From: Spiroplasma culicicola AES-1 | GTDB lineage: Bacteria; Bacillota_I; Bacilli_A; Mycoplasmatales; Mycoplasmataceae | Direction of reading: 5' to 3' | Assembly: GCF_000565175.1 (NCBI RefSeq) | Contig: NZ_CP006681.1 | Coordinates: forward strand, 744,001-808,000 | Length of the DNA stretch: 64,000 bases | Shown: positions 30,094-40,722 of the stretch, piece after piece | Layout of the letters: each line of letters begins with the position of its first letter | Position numbering within the stretch: the stretch's first letter is position 1 | Translations under genes and position numbers: made by a program | Notes under the pieces: model-generated | Told to the model about the DNA's origin: nothing | What the model saw: the letters and a program-made list of their open reading frames with translations, nothing else | The model's database searches: none

Positions 30094-30172
30094 ATTGCGC
30101 ACCATCTTTCTAATGTAAAACATTTTGATTTAGAATTAAATTATCCTAAACATATAATAATTATACATTAAA

Positions 30173-30202
30173 AAATGGTTTTTTTAGAAGTAAAAACCAT
30201 TT
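30173..30202 (-). terminator. Terminator at the end of the restriction island
   Basis: AAATGGTTTTT pairs with AAAAACCATTT, with T runs on the minus strand, 32 bases after the stop of the DUF4420 gene. Confidence 0.75.
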
Positions 30203-30233
30203 GGGGTTGAATAAATTATTTGATGAAATTGAT

Positions 30234-31163
30234 TTATTTAAATAAATTTTTTGTTAATTCATCAAAACTGATTAAATCTGAATTTGAAAAGTTTGTTTTA
30301 AATTGTCATTCAAATATATCTCTTGTATTAAATAAAATTTTGGGAATCTCAGAAAATGGCACTATTTGAAGTTCATTATCAAATATTTTCAATTTAATTC
30401 TCTTGTTCTTAAATTTTTTTTCTTGATATTCAGCAGAAATTAATAATAAATTTAGTATTTCATTATCTTCATTAATTAAAATTTTAATATCACTAATTAA
30501 TTCAGATAGATTTTGTCCTTCACTTTGTCTATGAACATTAGTAGTTATAACATATGAATTGTTATCTAAATTATTCATTAATTTTTCTCTTATAGTATAC
30601 ATATTATTTCCTTCTGCATTCGATAAAATTTTTGCAGAAGCATTTAATGATTGAAAATCACAGTATGAATTATTGTAAGTAAGTAAATTTATAGGATCCT
30701 TATCTCCTTTTTTCTCAATTAGTTTTTTTAGAATATAAATTCTTGAAAAATCATTAATATATGATTCATAGCTTAAATTTTTTCCACTAAATATTTCAAC
30801 ATAATAGTTAAGTATTTGACCAATATTGACTCTCATATTTTCAAAAATTACATCTAAGGAATCAATAAAGTTTTTTATGAAGGTTTCATCATCAATCATT
30901 GAATCTATATGTTCAGAAATTGAAAGTAAGATAATTTCATATTCCTCAATTTCACCCATAAATTCCAAAGGTGCCTTTTGAAAATATTTAATAAATCTAC
31001 CTAACTCCATAATTCTTAAAAAAGATTTATCATATGTTCCTTCAACATCCTTGATCACAGAATTTTTAAATTTTATTACCCTATAACGTTCACCTTTTTC
31101 TTCTCCTTCAAGAATATCAAAATATGTTGAACGTATATTTTCACAAACAATTAATTCTTTCAT
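30234..31163 (-). CDS. DUF4420 / PD-(D/E)XK-motif protein of the GHKL-Z1 system
   Basis: A 309-residue protein overlapping the Z1 gene by 13 bases, at the position where DUF4420 (PD-(D/E)XK motif) proteins sit in GHKL-Z1 operons. It has the family shape: an N-terminal beta/alpha part with a long middle helix, then CDF followed by NASAKIL, TTNVHRQSEGQNLSELISDI, and a C-terminal IVPFSEIPKIL. In the expected nuclease core the Asp of CDF is present, but I see ASAK where ExK would be expected, so the active site may be degenerate. The assignment relies on context as much as sequence. Confidence 0.65.
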
Positions 31164-32587
31164 TCTAAACCCTCATCTCTAAAAAAATCTTGGAATTTTT
31201 TGCGGCTATCTTCTGTAATTATTGCACCTTCTTGTAGTGAAGCAAAAAATTTATCTTCAATTATAGAAAGTTTTTTATATAAATTCTTCAACTGTTTTGT
31301 CATTAATATTCTTGTAACATGTAGTGTTTTATTTCTATAACCAAATCATCTACATCTTTGAATCATAGTTGCATAATTAAAATTTTTATCATTATAGTTA
31401 GTTATTAATTCAATCACTAAGTTTTCAAATGTTACGCCTCTACTCAAAAGATTTCCTCCAATTATAAAATTAAATCTAGCATTAAATTCTTTATCATCAG
31501 ATTTACTATTAAAAATAACAATTTTATATTTATTTTTGAAGCTCTTATTTTTGTCTCCGTAATCTTGTAAGAGCTTTTCTAGTAGTTTTTGGGTTTTATT
31601 ATGGCTTTTAGTATCTGTACTTGTATTTATTAAAATATTTAACCTTTTATTAAGCTTTTCATATTCTTCAAAATTTTCATCAAATGTTTTTAGCAATGTT
31701 TTTAGCATATATTCTTCATCTGTATCGTTTTCTAGTTCTATAATATATTTATCATCAGTATGAAATGTTTTAAAACCAGTATAATTTTCATCTGTAGATA
31801 ATGGAACTATATATTTAATCTTTTTTTTATCATTCAAACCTTGATTATAAAAAATATTTTTATATGGTGTAGCAGAAATAGGAATATACATAACACTTTG
31901 ATTTATATCAATGATGTTCGAAATTAATCGTGAAATTGTATTTTGAGAATCAACATCATCTTCCTCTGATACTCCAGCAATATCAGATTCATCGTCTAAT
32001 ATAGCAATATTACACTTATCAATGTTAGTTACAGATGCCAAAATTTCATATAAATTTTCTAAATTAGTTTTTTCTTTAAGAATAGGTAAAAATAATTTAT
32101 ATCCTAATTGTTTATTTTTGATCATGTGAGATATTATTCCATTTATTTTATAAAGATCTTGCTCTTGCTTTATATCTTCAAGTTTTATTGAACCACTATC
32201 ATTAAAGACTAATTTGAATTCTTCAAATCTACCTTTGTTTTGCTCAATTAAGACATTTGTATTTCCACCCATAAATATAACAATATCATATCCATTGTCA
32301 TATAAAACTGATGCGGCAAGTATACTATTAAGTGTTTTACCAGATTGAACCCTACCAAATAAAGCAGCAGATTTAATTTCTGGTCTATTTTTTATTAAAT
32401 GATTAATCCTATTTAAATTTGTCTGTAAAATTTCATTAATAAATTTAATAGAATAAACACCTGATTTACTTAATTTTTTTATAACTTCAATTATTAATTT
32501 ACTATTTGTATGTGATGATACTAATTCAGTTTCAATATCATTGACATCAAGATTTAGTGCATCAAAATCTATTTTCCAATTACTCAT
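31151..32587 (-). CDS. Z1-domain ATPase of a restriction system
   Basis: A 478-residue helicase-like ATPase. Visible motifs are Walker A FGRVQSGKT (77-85), Walker B-like ILDDESD (196-202), ISATPY (238-242 region), GGNLLSRGVTFENL (377-390) and QRCRWFGYR (410-418); the last two are hallmarks of the Z1 domain. Z1 proteins occur with MutL-type GHKL ATPases in predicted restriction operons. The ATG overlaps the end of the GHKL gene by 8 bases (ATGAGTAA), and the 3' end overlaps the next gene by 13 bases. Confidence 0.9.
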
Positions 32588-34451
32588 CAAATACCTCATT
32601 AAATATTTCAAGATCATCAATAAAAATTGATAATTTTTGTTCTGCATCACTTTGATATTCACATTCTTCTAATAATTTACTAAATTTCTTTGCAATTATT
32701 GTAGAAAATATTAATGCTAATCTAATTTGATGATCATCAGATTTTTGGAGTTTAGTTAATGATTTATAATTAAAATTAAATCTTAGCTCTAAAATATTTT
32801 CAAGTAAAACCTTATCTGTTGAATACTTAAATTCAATAGATCTCTCCTGATTTTTATCAAAAGAAAAATAATAATAGATTATTTTGTCATTATTTTTATA
32901 AGGAAAAGTTTTCTTATTATTTCCAAACTTAGATGAGGGAGTCAACTTCAATTCACCTTTTTTTATATCAGTAATAACTTTTAAAGTGTCTTCATTGTTT
33001 AAATAAATATTGGTTTTCTTTAAAATATTTTTTGTTTTAGAAATTTCATAATCTGAAACATAATTTTCGTCAATTGCATATTCCAAAGATCCTTTTAAAA
33101 AACCAATTATTACCCTACCTATATAATCCATGTGTAAATCAGATTTCAAAAAATTGACAAACTCTTTTAAAACATTTTCTACAACATTGCCATTTGCAAT
33201 TGCACTCTTATCATCTTTTGGCTGAAAATCAATTTTTAAGTTCGGCTCTGTTGTATCAAGATGTATATCTGCTTTTCATAATTTATCTTCAGTTTTAATG
33301 TCACCAGAGCTTGTGTTTGTTAGAGTCAATATCTTACGTTCAAAAACTTTTAAATTTGGTGCCATTTTTGTATAATTTCCCATATTAATAATTCTATTAT
33401 CTTGAACTATAGAAACTCCCCCAAAAATATCTTGTAGAGAATACTTCCTGATATCATTATAATTAAGAAATGAGAAATATGCTTTCAGCTTTACATGATT
33501 ATTTACATGATATCTTGCAATATATGGGAAAAAAAATTCTCAATTAAATTTGTTTTGTTTAATATCATTAATAATTTTTCCAACTGAAATACCATAATCA
33601 GATTGTAATTGTTTATCCTTATTACTATTTATTGCGCCTTGCTCAATCAATTCTTTTTCAAGTTTATCAAAATTAAAATTTTTAAATTGTTTTGAAGCAA
33701 TTTCAGATGTTATTTCATAATCAAAAAGATATAAAGATTCTTTATTTATATTCACTTTCTGATTATTATATACAACAGATAAATTTAGTTTTACATCTGC
33801 TTTACCTTCAATAAAATACAAATATTTAAAATATAAATACACATATATATTATTTTTTCTCAAATTATAATCTTTTGGTATAGATGTAAATTCTACAGTT
33901 TTATGGTTAAAATTATTTGCATCAGTAAAATTAGTTTTTTTAATACCAATAATTGTTCCAGTTTCACCAATTAATACTTTTTGATACAGATTTATATCTT
34001 TTTCACTAATATCTTCAGGCTTTACAGCCTCTTCAACAGAAAAACCTGCATTTTGTTTTGAAACCATTTCATCATAATCCAAATATGTTCCAACAACAGT
34101 ATTTTTTGACTTTGAAAATAATTCAACTCTTTTTCCAAGTCAAAAACCACCCCTTTTAAAACCAATGTGTCGTCTATTAAAGCCATCTTTATTTAAATCA
34201 TCTTCTGGATTAAACATTACTCAGCATTCTTCGATTTTTGAAGATTCAATTCCTGGTCCATTATCTATAAATAGATATGATTCAGTATCACCATCTACAA
34301 TTATTTTCATATTTAAAGTCTTCTGACCACTTTTTATTGCAGATGATAGTGAATTATCAATAAATTCTCCAAATGTAGTTATTAGATAATAACTATCTGA
34401 TGTTCAGCTGTGAACCATTCCTGCAATATGTACTTTTTGTTGTGTTGACAT
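32580..34451 (-). CDS. MutL/MORC-type GHKL ATPase of a restriction system
   Basis: A 623-residue protein. The N-terminal GHKL ATPase is clear: FGEFIDNS (Glu29, Asn33), DNGPG (63-67) and IGFKRGGFWLG (96-106). The remaining 450 residues lack the MutL endonuclease motif and are unlike housekeeping MutL. SD GGGAGG stands upstream of the ATG, 16 bases after the DUF262 stop. It probably dimerises on ATP binding and regulates the nuclease and Z1 partners. Several Trp are TGA, so the gene has been adapted to or acquired within code-4 hosts. Confidence 0.9.
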
Positions 34452-34467
34452 ATTTTTTTCCTCCCTG

Positions 34468-36195
34468 TTATATTGAAAATTCATTCAATAAAAAATTAAT
34501 AATTTTTTTTCCTCTTTCTAAAATTGAAGTTCTATCTATATTTGTAAGTTCTTCAAATCTTATTGAATCACTTATACACTCTGTTTTTAATTTAAAAACA
34601 TTGTTTTTGTATGATGGAATAGGTTTAGTTTCTCAAACAAAATGTGAACCTATACTTAGCTGTACTTTGTTAAAATCCTCTTTGTTAGAAAAACCGAGAT
34701 CACTTAATTCTGACTTGCTTACTTCATTAGAATCAAAAATAGATTCAATTTTTTTTAGACTGTCAAATTTTTTTAAATAATATTCTCCTGCAATTTTTAT
34801 ATTAGCCATATATGTTCAATATAATGCAATTATTTTTTTAGTTTTTGTACTATTGTATATGTAATTACTCAAATCAATATTAAAAAGTAGTTTTTTATCT
34901 TCTTTTCCATATTGAGTAGATGCATTAATATTAAAAAGTTCTTTTCTTAATATATTTTCATAATTTCCTGTATGACCTAAAGTCATTTCATTATTTCTCA
35001 TTTTGTGCACAATGCCTAAAAATTTTCTTTGAATTTCTTTATCTTTTGAATACGGATCTAACAATCATCTAACATAGTAAACAGTAATTATTTTTGTTAA
35101 AATTGTTAGAGTTTCACTATCAAGTGAATTTGTCAAAGCTTTTTGAGCTAAAAATAATTGCATTCCACCAGTTAAACCAAAAGTACCTAAAGCTTTTAAT
35201 ATTGTTGTATATTTTCAATAATCTGCTAAAAATTTATCTGAAATAGCAATTTTTTTAATCATAATATATGCAGCTACATAAGAATGAATTTCATTAATTG
35301 CTTCATGATAATTGTTCTTAAAATTATCACTTATATATTCTTTAAACAATGTATACACTGCATTTTTATTATCCGTAGTTGCGCCACCTTTTGAAGTATT
35401 TTTCTTTGTAATTTGATGACCTTGCCACACATCAACAAGTAATATGAAAAAATCATCAGTATCTGTCTCTTCAAGCATCTTTGTTCACTTATCTCAATAT
35501 TGTTTTTTAATTTCATGTTGTTCATTTGGATCCTTAAAACCCATTAACAAGCAATTTCTAATTAAATCCGTTAGAGAAAGTGGCTTACCTGTTGAATTTA
35601 TAGCCTCAAAAGTTATTTGTTCCATAGATTTATTGATTATTACAATCTTAGCAATTACAATTCTATTAAAAAGATTTACAAAGTTTGATATTGATTCAGT
35701 GATATTTCAAAAAATTTTATTATTTTTTTCAAAATAATCTATGAAATAATTATATGCTGTGGCTACACTAGAACCAGAATTTTGGTCTAACCTTTTAGCA
35801 AATAAATTTCTTATTTCTGCTCTATCAGCATCAATTGACTCAAGTTTGTATTCATTATTGTAAATTATAATTTTATTTAAAATATCTGCAATATTCAAAT
35901 TATTATAATGAGAATTAAAATTTTGCTCCAGAAAGCGAGCATAAGCAACAGCATAAATAATAGATGTTGTTAGCCTTTGCTGACCATCTAAGATTACTAA
36001 ACTATCTTGATTTACTGATGCAATTATACTTCCCATAAAATACTGATCAAAAGAGTTTTCCTCAATTAGTTCAATTGTTTTAATAAACTGATTAAATTGA
36101 TTTTCATCTCATTTATATGGTCTTTGAAAAGTTGGAATTATAAATTTATTATTTTCCATTAAAAAATCAATTAATTTTATTTTTTCTATAATCAT
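34468..36195 (-). CDS. DUF262 protein (GmrSD/ParB-like nuclease family)
   Basis: A 575-residue protein with DUF262 hallmarks IPTFQRPYKW (20-29) and VILDGQQRLTT (DGQQR at 70-74). These motifs define the ParB-like nucleotide-hydrolysing/nicking domain of GmrS and BrxU-type type IV restriction proteins. I find no C-terminal DUF1524 His-Asn-His motif, so a separate nuclease would be needed; the HNH gene just upstream is a candidate. It starts 5 bases after that HNH stop. At least seven Trp are TGA. Confidence 0.85.
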
Positions 36196-36200
36196 TAGTA

Positions 36201-37481
36201 TTAACCCCCAAAAAATTTACTATTATGTATTTTTAAAAATCTCTCCATTTCTGGAGTTTGTACTGAAATATATTCATATGTTTTCATATCTTTAATTAAT
36301 TTAATGTATTTTTCTTTTGTTATAATTTTAAATTCTTTACAATCAACTGTAATATTATAACTATCAAACATCTTATCATGGGTTGGACATAATAAAAAAG
36401 CATTATGTTCAGACATTGCTTCTTTAGCATTATCACAATCTTTAAATGCCTTTATGTGTGAAGCAATTAGAAACTCACTGTATTCAAAGTCACAAAATGC
36501 ACATTTAGAATATTTACTAAATAATTTAGCTTTTAATTTAGATTGTAGACTATAATTTCTTTGAGATATATTCATCTCTACATATAATTTAAGAAATTCT
36601 TCATAATTATATTCTACACCTTTATTTATTTCTTGTTCACCTAATTCCATAGCATAAAGTTTGTTTATAGAAGATGTAGATAAACAAAAAAATGATTCTG
36701 GTTCATTGAAAATTTTTACTTTAATTTCTTCTCTAAAAATACCAGTATATAAACATATTTTATAAAAATCTTTGTACTGAGCTTCTTTAAGCTCATTTAA
36801 TTTTAAATCCTTTAGTAAAATATTTAAGTTCTCATTTTGTATATCTATATTTTTAGAATTTATTGATTCATTAATTATTATTGCTTCAGCAACATATTCA
36901 TCAACTTTCTCTAAATATTCCTCAAATGATCTAAAATAATTAATTCTTCTAAAAATATGATATGTTAAAAATTTATTATGACCTTTTTTTATTAGTTCAC
37001 CCATATAATGAAACATAATCATAAAAGGTCTGATTTCATTATTTTTAATTAAAGCTGCTTTTTTTACAGAATCCAGTCACATTTCATTAAATAGATCACG
37101 TGTTATTTCATTTTTATATATATCCTTATAACTCAAATTCATCAAATTAGTATTTATAATATTCATTATTTGTGAAATTGTACTAACATATTTTTTCCCA
37201 GTTGATGTTATTTTTATATATTTAACTTTATCTATTTCATTAGTAGTAACAAACTTATAAAAAATCAATTGGTTAATTAAGTCTTTGGCATTTTGCCAAC
37301 TTTCTCAATCTCCTTCAAATATAATTCCTTTTTCTAAAAAAATATCTTGCATTCTTTTAGAAAAATATTTAACTTCAATATAACCATTTTCAGAATTTAA
37401 AACATCTAGTAATGTAAAAATTTGACTGATACTTGTGTTCTTTCTATTTATTATTCATTTTTCTGCCTTTAAATCTATCAT
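36201..37481 (-). CDS. HNH endonuclease-like protein, first gene of the minus-strand arm
   Basis: A 426-residue protein. The C-terminal third carries an HNH_2-type core: CAFC (Cys327, Cys330), IASHIKAF (His342), HNAFLLCPTHDKMFD (Asn360, His368), typical of restriction endonucleases. The N-terminal 300 residues are helical and of unknown role, perhaps DNA recognition. A TATAAT box at 37488-37493 lies only 6 bases before the ATG and no SD is seen, suggesting a leaderless message. It heads the DUF262-GHKL-Z1-DUF4420 arm. Confidence 0.8.
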
Positions 37482-37584
37482 ATTTTTATTATACATTTAA
37501 TATTATTTCTCTGATTATATTTTTCACAATAAACTGTTTATGAGTTAAAAAATTTATTATAATTAAAGTGATTTGGAGGCTATT
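37482..37584. promoter_or_regulatory. Divergent promoter region of the restriction island
   Basis: A 103-bp region between the two arms. Plus-strand -10 TATAAT is at 37558-37563, 21 bases before the HNH-methyltransferase unit. Minus-strand -10 TATAAT is at 37488-37493, abutting the ATG of the other arm. Both arms can be co-regulated here. No clear operator dyad is visible. Confidence 0.55.
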
Positions 37585-38694
37585 ATGTTTTATATTTTAA
37601 AAATTCCCTATATTTCAAAAGGTTCATTAAAATCTACTGCATCCAAGGAGACTTATTCTTTTCAGGGGAATGCCTACATTTATGTTGAAAAAAACTCAGG
37701 TAAAATGTTTCATTCTTTTGCATTATTAAATGATAATTTTAAATATAGAGCTACTGACCCTAAAATGATGCAAACACATTATTGAAGAAATAAAAATTTT
37801 CAAGAGACAAGAAAATTATTTTTTGAAAATAGAGATAAAAGTTATCAAATAATCACTTTTTCTGGAAAAATAGAAAAACTAAACCAGCACATTATGCAAA
37901 ATTTTAATACAATTTTAACTACTCAAGGCCTAATTTATGGAAGTAATCCTGCAGGGGCTGAGCAAAATATCAATAGTTCTATTTTATTAATAAATGAAGA
38001 AAGATACCAAAAGAAATACAAATACCATCGTTTTGTAAATTTTTTTAATTCCTTAGAAGATAAAACTATTAAATTTTCAAATGAAGAATTGATAAAAATG
38101 TACAATGAAACAGATGACTTTTTATCAATTGAAGATTATTTCACAAACTTTCCATATTTAAAAGAAGAATTTGAAAGTAAATACAATTATGAATTTACTG
38201 ATAAATTCAGTGATAAAGATTTTGGCAATATAACTGGCAAATTTGAAAACTATAAAGTTCAATCAATAATTCAGTTGTACGAAGAAAATTTCTATACTCT
38301 TGAAGAATTTAAAGTTAAAATGAGAGGTATTTTTTCTGCTAATGTCAGTGCATTTTTAAAGGAAAAAACTTTTAAAAAAACATACACAAAAGGAGAAAAT
38401 CACCCCTCACCAAAAAAAGCACATATTTTAAGCTTTAGTTCTTTAATTAATAATGGTAGATACTTTGAAGCAGTTGATCCAAAAAACTGTATTATGATAA
38501 GTCCTAATTTACATGATTTATTTGATAATAATTTTATCACTTATGACCCAAATGGAAAATGTATTCGCATTAAAGGTAATATTAATGTTACTGATGAATA
38601 TAACATTAGTTCAACAATTATAAAAAATTTTGGTATTAAAAAGTATTTAAGAGAAAACTATGATCACTATATAATAAAAGGAGTAAATTATTAA
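37585..38694 (+). CDS. HNH restriction endonuclease (partner of the C5 methyltransferase)
   Basis: A 369-residue protein with a C-terminal HNH core lacking zinc cysteines: KKAHILSF (His280), DPKNCIMISPNLHDLFD (Asn301, His310). This HNH_2-like pattern is common in type II restriction enzymes. SD TTGGAGG stands 7 bases before the ATG. Its stop overlaps the methyltransferase ATG (TAATG), the normal coupling of a restriction enzyme and its methylase. The N-terminal 250 residues are not recognised and probably hold the specificity. Trp at residue 68 is TGA. Confidence 0.82.
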
Positions 38695-39884
38695 TGAATA
38701 AAAAAATTTTTGAGACTTTTGCGGGAATTGGTTCACAAGCAAAAGCACTAGAAAAATTGAGTCATGATTTTAATGATTTTAATTTTTCTATTTCAAACAC
38801 TTGTGAATGATATACAGAAGCAATTTTAGGTTATTCTGCAATACACAATGATTTAAATTCAAAAGAATATAAAAATTTATATGAAGAAGAACTTGATGTA
38901 ATAATAAGTTTTTTAGAAACAAAAACACTTTCTTCAAATTCAAAAGAACCTCTAAAAGATATTAAAAAATTAAAAGAAGATAAAATTAGAAAATTATATG
39001 CATCTATAAAATTAAATAATAATTTAATTGATATAACTAAAGTAAAAGTTCAAGATATTAATGCGCCTTTTGATCTTTTAACTTATTCATTTCCTTGTCA
39101 AGATTTATCAATTGCTGGAAAAGGTAAAGGTATGAGTGAAAATTCAAATACTCGTTCAAGTCTTTTGTGAAATATCCTACAGTTATTAAATGATTTAAAT
39201 AAATTAAATAAACTACCTGAATATTTAGTGATGGAAAATGTGCCTGCAATTAAAAATAGTAATCACATTGATAATTTAAATAAATTTAAAGATAAATTAA
39301 ATAACTTAGGTTATACGAACGTTGAATTTGTGCTTAATGCAATTGACTATGGAATACCTCAAAATAGAAAAAGATATTTTTTAATATCTAAACTAAATGA
39401 TGATTCATTTGATTTTAATTTTGATGATATAAAAGTTGATCTCCCAAAATTTAGTGATTTTTTAGATATTGAGAATATGAAACCTACGAACAGAGAAAAT
39501 CAATATCTTTCTTCAATAAAAAAACTTTATTCAAATGTAGATAAAGATAATAAATTTAAAATAAAGTATAAAAATTTAAATGTTTACCCTACTTTTAACC
39601 AAGCAAATATTGTGACAGGTCTTGAAAGTAAATGCATTTCAACTGTAACTTTTTCTGGTGAAAATTCACGACAAAGAGTTTTTGCAAAGCAAAATAATGA
39701 AGATAGAGTATTGCAATTGGGAGCCAAGGAAAATATATTGCTAATGGGTTTTGATAAAGATGACTATTTTAAATTAAAAGAAATTGGATTAAGTGACGAA
39801 AAAATTCGTGGTCTTGCAGGAAACTCAATTGTTGTTAATGTATTGTACTACATCTTTAAAAAGATATTTATAAATTGTAATTAA
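38694..39884 (+). CDS. C5-cytosine DNA methyltransferase, M.SssI-like
   Basis: A 396-residue C5 methyltransferase with all key motifs: I FETFAGIGSQ (6-15), IV SFPCQDLS with catalytic Cys135, VI MENV (180-183), VIII QNRKR (223-227), X AGNS (375-378). The long insert between motifs I and IV, ending ETKTLSSNSK, and the AIHN and CEWY segments match M.SssI of Spiroplasma as I remember it, so the two are close relatives. The target-recognition region (about 270-330) differs enough that CpG specificity cannot be assumed. It is coupled to the HNH endonuclease. Confidence 0.93.
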
Positions 39885-39933
39885 TTTTTTAAATTGAAAG
39901 TTAACATATTTAATCATACTTCTAATAAAAAAT

Positions 39934-39958
39934 AAAATAAGGCTTTTAACCTTATTTT
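39934..39958 (+). terminator. Terminator between the methyltransferase and GNAT genes (bidirectional)
   Basis: AAAATAAGG-CTTTTAA-CCTTATTTT with T-rich flanks on both sides. On the minus strand it overlaps the stop codon of the GNAT gene. Confidence 0.8.
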
Positions 39959-40722
39959 ATTTTATATTGTTCAAATCAAAAGTCTTCATCAATAAATCCA
40001 ACTCTTTGATACAGTCCCATTCCCATTTCACTGGCAAATAATAGAACGTGTTGCATATTATGTTCAATACAATCATTGACAATTGTTTTGATTAAATTAC
40101 TTGCAAGACCTTGATTTCTAAATTCAGGCAACACGTTAATATCATCAACCACTGCATAACCGTTTTCAAACATAAAGATACTTCCAGTTCCTGCCACTTG
40201 ACCATTTACTTTAATTAAAAACATATGACAGTAATCTTGTAATTCTAATAGTCCAATAAACTTATTTTTATCAGATACTAAATTAACTTCCATAATATCA
40301 ACTACATATAAAAATGAATTTAAATCTTCTTGTTCTTTAACTTGAATAATTTCAACATTATTTGCTAAGTCAATATTAAATTTAGCAGCGGGTGCTAAAT
40401 CCATTTTCATGTATTTGTAGTTTTCTTTAAATTCTACACTTTGATCTAAAGTTTGATTATTATATTGTGAATGTGTGAAATTTAATAAAAAATTAGGATT
40501 ATATTGTTCTTTTAACTGATTGAAATTTTGATCAATTTCAAAATTTCAATCAGTAATTAACATTGCGTTATTATAGTTACTACATTCTAAAGCACTAAAA
40601 CTTGAAGTTTCAATTCTTTTAATTGATTTGTGAATTGGATCAACATAGTGGTTTAAATAACACAAAACAATTGTGTTATATTTTTCAATATCTTGATAAT
40701 TAAAATCAACTTGTTTTATCAT
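39952..40722 (-). CDS. GNAT-family acetyltransferase
   Basis: A 256-residue protein with a C-terminal GNAT domain: VNGQVAGTGSIFMFENGYAV, then DDINVLPEFRNQGLASNLI, the acetyl-CoA-binding motif A. The first 110 residues have no recognised motif. It starts 2 bases after the permease stop and is co-transcribed with it. The acyl acceptor is unknown. Confidence 0.82.

What the first reader, a model, noticed from the sequence alone, without database searches (positions are those of the whole stretch)
30234..39884. Two-armed restriction island: HNH + M.SssI-like methylase, divergent from HNH + DUF262 + MutL-like GHKL + Z1 + DUF4420
Seven genes in two divergent, tightly packed units share one 103-bp promoter region and have terminators at both outer ends. 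GHKL-Z1-DUF4420 with a C5 methylase is a known type of predicted restriction operon (work from the Aravind group on MORC origins, from memory). Here it carries in addition two different HNH proteins and a DUF262 protein, which by itself is a type IV restriction family. I infer one ATP-dependent system with three possible nuclease effectors protected by one methylase, an arrangement I do not know as described. Two independent systems placed side by side is the alternative.
Basis: partly seen in the sequence, partly recalled or inferred. Interest (0 to 1): 0.88.

Follow-up and report, generated by a model that had tools for sequence, protein, structure and literature searches.

The report
Rewired MORC-Z1 defence unit beside restriction pair
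A small wall-less bacterium carries, back to back, an ordinary methylase-plus-nuclease restriction pair and an unusual DNA-defence operon in which the usual DNA-marking gene is replaced by a sensor protein of a kind that recognises modified DNA and the usual nuclease appears dead, so two systems, not one, sit here.

Summary
All seven genes are present, intact and tightly packed (code 4, TGA=Trp). They are best read as two independent systems.

Right arm: a MAG4270-family HNH protein and a C5 methylase. Homologues pair with a C5 methylase in all 8 other loci found. The window's C5 falls among MAG4270-linked methylases (58.5% to the nearest), not among those beside MORC-Z1. None of the 7 other loci found by the MAG4270 search holds MORC-Z1.

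Left arm: HNH - DUF262 - MORC - Z1 - DUF4420. A congener carries the last four genes in the same order (29-42% identity) without HNH, methylase or DndC. In 80 Z1 loci from other taxa the core is C5-MORC-Z1-DUF4420 (C5 directly upstream of MORC in 71). In mollicute short-Z1 loci that slot holds C5, an N6A/N4C methylase or DndC; here it holds DUF262. This DUF262 keeps its NTPase motifs but lacks the GmrSD HNH domain, and its DUF4420 has lost the ExK signature.

I infer a MORC-Z1 machine changed from modification-protected to modification-sensing (type IV-like), with the upstream HNH as a possible new nuclease. By-product: in 198 genomes of the order, all 8 DndC genes lie inside MORC-Z1 loci, and no DndD was found, apparently an undescribed phosphorothioation-type module.

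The parts
30234..31163 (-). P0001, DUF4420 homologue, PD-(D/E)XK fold, probable pseudo-nuclease
   Evidence: Profile-profile match to canonical DUF4420 (5e-8) and mollicute relatives (1e-9); catalytic E316, K318 and Q339 columns (96-98% conserved) substituted; AF2 model pLDDT 74 closest to Hjc/RecU/EcoRV-type folds (best Z 8.3)
31151..32587 (-). P0002, short-form Z1 SFII ATPase/helicase (478 aa)
   Evidence: Pfam Z1 4.7e-19; motifs GRVQSGKT, DDESD, SATPY, QRCRWFGYR intact
32580..34484 (-). P0003, prokaryotic MORC (GHKL + S5 ATPase), 634 aa
   Evidence: HATPase_c_3 7e-8; EFIDN, DNGPG and GFKRG/GFWLG motifs and MORC-specific S5 motif GVSIVQDNRII at residue 356
34468..36195 (-). P0004, DUF262/GmrSD_N protein without DUF1524 nuclease domain; predicted DNA-modification sensor NTPase
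   Evidence: GmrSD_N 5e-27; QR, DGQQR, FxxxN motifs kept, no HNH motif; 40% identical orthologue next to MORC in L004
36201..37496 (-). P0005, HNH endonuclease with unknown N-terminal ~300 aa; first gene of left operon
   Evidence: HNH_2 2.5e-9; CAFC, SHI, HN, THD..FD catalytic pattern intact; HNH similar to PDB 6yex
37497..37584 (.). Divergent intergenic region holding both promoters (inferred)
   Evidence: 88 bp between first ATGs (103 bp with alternative left start); promoter scan not informative
37585..38694 (+). P0006, MAG4270-family HNH putative restriction endonuclease
   Evidence: NCBIfam NF045952 4.4e-65, 220 bits against cut-off 53; AHI/KN/LHD.FD intact
38694..39884 (+). P0007, C5-cytosine DNA methylase, relative of M.MpeI
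   Evidence: DNA_methylase 1.9e-46; PDB 4dkj 5e-42 over full length; clade of MAG4270-linked C5s
30165..30203 (-). Terminator-like hairpin after DUF4420
   Evidence: 11-bp stem, -9.7 kcal/mol, z -3.4
39923..39965 (+). Terminator-like hairpin after C5 methylase, could serve both strands
   Evidence: 14-bp inner stem, -14.3 kcal/mol, z -5.9

Best explanation
Two independent DNA-defence systems are packed back to back. The right arm is a two-gene R-M pair: MAG4270-type HNH endonuclease plus C5 methylase. The left arm is a variant of the MORC-Z1 restriction machine. MORC (GHKL clamp) and Z1 (SFII motor) are intact. The gene slot that in relatives encodes the protecting modification enzyme (C5, N6A/N4C methylase, or the phosphorothioation enzyme DndC) is taken by a nuclease-less DUF262 protein. 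The DUF4420 subunit keeps its fold but has lost its catalytic signature. Proposed mechanism (inferred): DUF262 senses a modification on foreign DNA and, through NTP hydrolysis, licenses loading of MORC-Z1; MORC clamps and Z1 moves along the DNA; dead DUF4420 serves as a structural DNA-binding subunit; the first-gene HNH (P0005) supplies cleavage. It would thus be a type IV-like, modification-dependent restriction system needing no self-methylase. Shown by sequence: gene content, order, conserved core in a second species, intact ATPase and HNH motifs, lost ExK, lineage of the C5. Inferred: sensing, direction of discrimination, role of P0005.
For: Independence of arms: MAG4270-C5 pair away from MORC-Z1 in 7/7 loci; P0007 in the MAG-linked clade; left-arm core without the pair in G014. 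Slot replacement: C5 directly upstream of MORC in 71 of 80 Z1 loci from other taxa; DndC, D12, N6/N4 or C5 methylase beside most mollicute short-Z1 loci; DUF262 directly upstream of MORC in window and L004 only. DUF262 recurs in 6 of 21 short-Z1 loci against 2 of 80 elsewhere, Fisher p 0.0009 (loci are not fully independent). Nuclease-less DUF262 with sensor/NTPase motifs. DUF4420 signature loss in both units against 90 relatives; fold kept. No DndC in G014. GmrSD, SspE and DndI show DUF262 acting as modification sensor (PMC12137116, PMC11662687).
Against: The four-gene core is known from two species only. P0005 is found in the window alone (elsewhere only the HNH domain matches), so the G014 unit has no visible nuclease in its operon. 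DUF262 function is taken from GmrSD relatives at about 30% identity over the N-terminal half. Loss of ExK rests on a remote alignment; a migrated catalytic Glu cannot be excluded. G014 could make a protecting modification elsewhere in its genome; only DndC was excluded there.
Confidence: 0.5

Rival explanations
1. One composite ATP-dependent R-M system: C5 methylase protects self, MORC-Z1 drives several nucleases (HNH x2, DUF4420, DUF262).
For: C5 is the canonical partner of MORC-Z1 (71/80 directly upstream); HNH-C5-(one gene)-MORC-Z1 in one same-strand run exists in L055 and HNH genes lie beside C5 in L049, L052, L064; shared divergent promoter region.
Against: P0007 is not of the MORC-linked C5 clade but of the MAG4270-linked clade; the pair is away from MORC-Z1 in 7/7 loci; the core lacks it in G014; C5 is not in the left operon.
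Confidence: 0.1
2. The left arm is a phosphorothioate-gated system: DUF262 reads PT marks made in trans by the DndC of the second MORC-Z1 locus in the same genome (G000 458-463 kb), as SspE or DndI do with their PT modules.
For: Own genome carries DndC-MORC-Z1-ExK (L037); DUF262 and DndC occur in one operon in L045, L046, L056 and flank MORC-Z1 in L065; P0005 HNH has a weak hit to the PT-DNA_restrict model.
Against: G014 has the DUF262-MORC-Z1 unit but no DndC; the P0005 hit covers only the HNH domain; window DUF262 is not the closest kin of DndC-linked DUF262s.
Confidence: 0.17
3. HNH P0005 and DUF262 P0004 form a split GmrSD-like type IV enzyme that merely precedes an independent MORC-Z1 unit.
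For: Adjacent with 5 bp between; GmrSD family couples DUF262 to an HNH nuclease; two-protein DUF262 systems exist (GrwAB).
Against: In G014 the DUF262 orthologue stays with MORC-Z1-DUF4420 while the HNH is absent; DUF262 overlaps the MORC gene by 17 bp.
Confidence: 0.13
4. A non-cleaving MORC clamp: DUF262 detects foreign DNA, MORC-Z1 compacts or blocks it, no nuclease needed.
For: DUF4420 signature lost in both units, no nuclease gene in the G014 operon; eukaryotic MORCs act by trapping DNA (abstract of PMC8277788).
Against: The window operon does hold an intact HNH gene; no precedent in prokaryotes known to me.
Confidence: 0.08

Closest known systems
MORC/paraMORC restriction operons with Z1-type SFII helicase and novel RE-fold protein (Iyer, Abhiman, Aravind 2008, PMC2292703)
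   Same: MORC motif, Z1 helicase with a QxxRxFG-type motif, gene order MORC-Z1-DUF4420
   Different: No methylase in the operon; DUF262 in its slot; DUF4420 lacks ExK; an HNH gene heads the operon
MZA anti-phage system (NCBIfam/PADLOC MzaB, MzaC)
   Same: MutL-like ATPase, Z1 protein
   Different: Scores far below NCBIfam cut-offs (16 of 850 and 47 of 1500 bits); no AIPR gene in the window island
GmrSD / SspE / DndI / GrwAB DUF262 restriction proteins
   Same: DUF262 QR, DGQQR and FxxxN motifs
   Different: No C-terminal DUF1524 HNH domain; sits in an operon with MORC and Z1
MAG4270-type HNH + C5 methylase pair of mollicutes
   Same: Right arm: family score, pairing, C5 clade
   Different: Gene order HNH then C5 rather than C5 then HNH as in most relatives
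CglI / NgoAVII (C5 methylase, Z1-containing N protein, R protein; PMC4267653)
   Same: Z1-containing SF2 ATPase drives cleavage by a separate subunit; N and R proteins form a complex
   Different: No MORC; nuclease is PLD type; N protein has a further C-terminal domain

Membership tests
MORC family (Iyer 2008) | GHKL ATPase with intact N and G motifs | tested here: met
   HATPase_c_3 7.1e-8; EFIDN, DNGPG, GFKRG
MORC family (Iyer 2008) | S5-fold motif GhXhhpXXRhl unique to MORCs | tested here: met
   GVSIVQDNRII in P0003, GIVLMQDGRAI in orthologue; 77/78 canonical relatives; background 4/648 ORFs
MORC-Z1-RE restriction operon (Iyer type 3) | Adjacent Z1-type SFII helicase | tested here: met
   P0002 overlaps the MORC gene by 8 bp; Z1 4.7e-19
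MORC-Z1-RE restriction operon (Iyer type 3) | RE-fold protein with E-D-ExK motif | tested here: not met
   DUF4420 homologue present but E257, E316 and K318 columns substituted in P0001; E316 also in P0011
MORC-Z1-RE restriction operon (Iyer type 3) | Linked DNA methylase (frequent, not universal) | tested here: not met
   None in the left operon; the adjacent divergent C5 belongs to the MAG4270 clade; none beside the G014 unit
MZA system | MzaB and MzaC at NCBIfam cut-off | tested here: not met
   15.9 of 850 bits and 46.6 of 1500 bits
MZA system | AIPR gene (feature from memory) | tested here: not met
   All seven island proteins scanned with Pfam, none is AIPR
GmrSD/SspE/DndI modification-dependent enzymes | DUF262 with QR, DGQQR, FxxxN | tested here: met
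GmrSD/SspE/DndI modification-dependent enzymes | DUF1524 HNH domain | tested here: not met
   No Pfam hit, no EHIxP-type motif
GmrSD/SspE/DndI modification-dependent enzymes | Activity gated by DNA modification | not testable with these tools
   Needs biochemistry
MAG4270-type R-M pair (right arm) | MAG4270 family score | tested here: met
   220 bits, cut-off 53
MAG4270-type R-M pair (right arm) | Adjacent C5 methylase of the linked clade | tested here: met
CpG C5 methylases (M.SssI/M.MpeI) | C5 catalytic motifs and full-length similarity | tested here: met
   PCQ, ENV, QNRKR; 4dkj 5e-42
CpG C5 methylases (M.SssI/M.MpeI) | CpG specificity | not testable with these tools
   Needs methylome or in vitro assay

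The most novel reading that the evidence does not exclude
A MORC-Z1 restriction machine has switched from 'self marked, attack unmarked' to 'attack marked': the modification enzyme slot has been taken over by a nuclease-less DUF262 sensor, the PD-(D/E)XK subunit has become a scaffold, and cutting (if any) has passed to an HNH protein or is replaced by MORC clamping.
Probability: 0.35. Interest if true: 0.75.

Novelty: new variant of a known kind. Interest (0 to 1): 0.6.

Why it matters
Prokaryotic MORC operons have been largely predicted R-M systems since 2008, and how MORC, the Z1 motor, the nuclease and self-recognition fit together is open. A natural variant in which the protecting enzyme is exchanged for a sensor and the nuclease site is lost separates those roles, so that recognition, ATP-driven loading and cleavage can be tested one by one. 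The wider survey shows that mollicute MORC-Z1 modules exchange their modification partner (C5, N6A, phosphorothioation enzyme DndC), which would link MORC machines to DNA-backbone sulfur chemistry.

Tried and rejected
Composite seven-gene system: rejected on C5 phylogeny and independent occurrence. Direct relation of the left arm to phosphorothioation: kept only as a rival, because G014 lacks DndC. GHKL alignment A1 gave no further relatives in genome contigs or viral contigs, nor beyond the genus in 392 phylum genomes, so Z1 was used as anchor. P0003 found nothing in plasmids. AlphaFold of P0005 from a single sequence was useless (pLDDT 32). PDB sequence searches of DUF262 (A2) and Z1 (A5) found nothing. 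Foldseek alone gave no significant hit for P0001; VIA gave PD-(D/E)XK nucleases on top at Z 8.3 or less, which is only supportive. Synteny at the permease side of the island is not kept in 10 congeners, so no empty-site comparison was possible. Promoter scan was uninformative.
Full report
Observation. Read with TGA=Trp, the region holds exactly seven intact genes in two divergent, overlapping or near-overlapping units (translations). Pfam and NCBIfam identify Z1, HATPase_c_3, GmrSD_N (DUF262), HNH_2, MAG4270-family HNH and C5 methylase; DUF4420 is below Pfam's cut-off but is confirmed by profile-profile comparison. Terminator-like hairpins lie at both outer ends. The divergent gap is 88 bp, or 103 bp with the alternative start.

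The right arm is its own system. A search of 198 genomes of the order found MAG4270-type HNH genes in 8. In all seven other loci, and in L067 found otherwise, a C5 methylase is adjacent, while none of the seven 10-17-kb stretches contains MORC or Z1. L067, which was found through its Z1 gene, has a remote MAG4270 relative 4.4 kb from MORC. In a tree of C5 methylases, the window's enzyme lies with the MAG4270-linked ones (58.5% identity to the nearest, in G004), apart from the C5 genes directly upstream of MORC. It is a full-length relative of M.MpeI (5e-42). This is an ordinary mollicute R-M pair.

The left arm. A congener (G014, locus L004) has DUF262-MORC-Z1-DUF4420 in the same order with identities of 40, 40, 42 and 29%, but no HNH, methylase or DndC beside it. 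These four genes are therefore a unit; the first-gene HNH (P0005) is an addition seen only in the window, although it is co-oriented and 5 bp away.

What the unit derives from. A scan of about 85,000 species genomes with the Z1 alignment gave 80 loci across bacteria and archaea. Of these, 78 have MORC-type GHKL, 75 a C5 methylase, and in 71 the C5 is directly upstream of the GHKL gene. A DUF4420-sized gene follows Z1 in 73. 77 of 78 GHKLs carry the MORC-specific S5 motif of Iyer 2008, as do the window protein and its orthologue; the background rate is 4 of 648. In mollicutes a short-Z1 subfamily exists (L037-L071). Its loci keep MORC-Z1-ExK, but the modification partner varies: C5 (L042, L055), D12 N6A methylase (L057, L059, L045), N6/N4 methylase (L060), AIPR plus double D12 (L043), and most often DndC. 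In the window and L004 the slot upstream of MORC is DUF262.

Two further changes. [quoted passage not shown] In GmrSD, SspE, DndI and GrwAB the DUF262 part is a modification sensor and NTPase (PMC12137116, PMC11662687). Second, in an alignment of the window and L004 DUF4420 proteins with 90 relatives, the catalytic Glu of ExK (96% conserved) and the following Gln (98%) are substituted in both proteins, and the first Glu (97%) and the Lys (98%) in the window protein. An AlphaFold model built with 37 relatives keeps a PD-(D/E)XK-like fold. Z1 motifs, MORC motifs and both HNH sites are intact.

Mechanism. I read this as a MORC-Z1 machine that no longer carries its own modification enzyme and instead uses DUF262 to sense modified DNA: a type IV-like system, with DUF4420 as scaffold and P0005 as the likely nuclease in this strain. 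Gene content, order, motif loss and arm independence are shown; sensing, polarity of discrimination and the role of P0005 are inferred.

By-product. In 198 genomes, DndC occurs in 8, and all 8 lie inside MORC-Z1 loci. No DndD passes its cut-off in those genomes. The broad 2024 survey of phosphorothioation systems (PMC10853773) treats DndD/DndE as always present and holds no mention of MORC, GHKL, Z1 domain or Mycoplasma. This association appears undescribed in the papers searched and may be more important than the original finding.

Limits. The DUF262-type core rests on two genomes; loci are phylogenetically related, so p-values are indicative only; no function has been tested.

Noticed in passing
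L037 (G000:C1:458655-464233), also L044, L045, L046, L050, L051, L056, L065: DndC (phosphorothioation PAPS reductase) next to MORC - short Z1 - PD-ExK: all 8 DndC genes of 198 mollicute genomes lie in such loci, with no DndD over cut-off in those genomes; possibly an undescribed DndC-MORC-Z1 modification-restriction system.
   Followed up: partly
L004:119-5391 (G014): HNH gene, a GHKL-TIR-like fusion resembling paraMORC4 and a NOV_C-domain protein lie just upstream of the DUF262-MORC-Z1 unit, a neighbouring but different GHKL defence cluster.
   Followed up: no
L038 (G000:C1:470000-489000), also L040, L048, L053, L054, L058, L061: Third Z1 gene of the host genome: a long Z1 protein (about 845 aa) without GHKL, resembling the N proteins of CglI/NgoAVII in lacking a MORC partner.
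   Followed up: no
L105, L120: Ureaplasma and Mycoplasmataceae genomes with PAPS-reductase directly upstream of MORC - short Z1, extending the DndC-like association beyond the family.
   Followed up: partly
L043:4574-13620: Short-Z1 locus with AIPR upstream of MORC and a fused double D12 methylase plus HNH downstream, an MZA-like arrangement in a mollicute.
   Followed up: no
PADLOC model PDLC03333: A PADLOC model named type II methyltransferase matches DndC proteins at 1e-66 over the PAPS-reductase part; the model name may be misleading.
   Followed up: no
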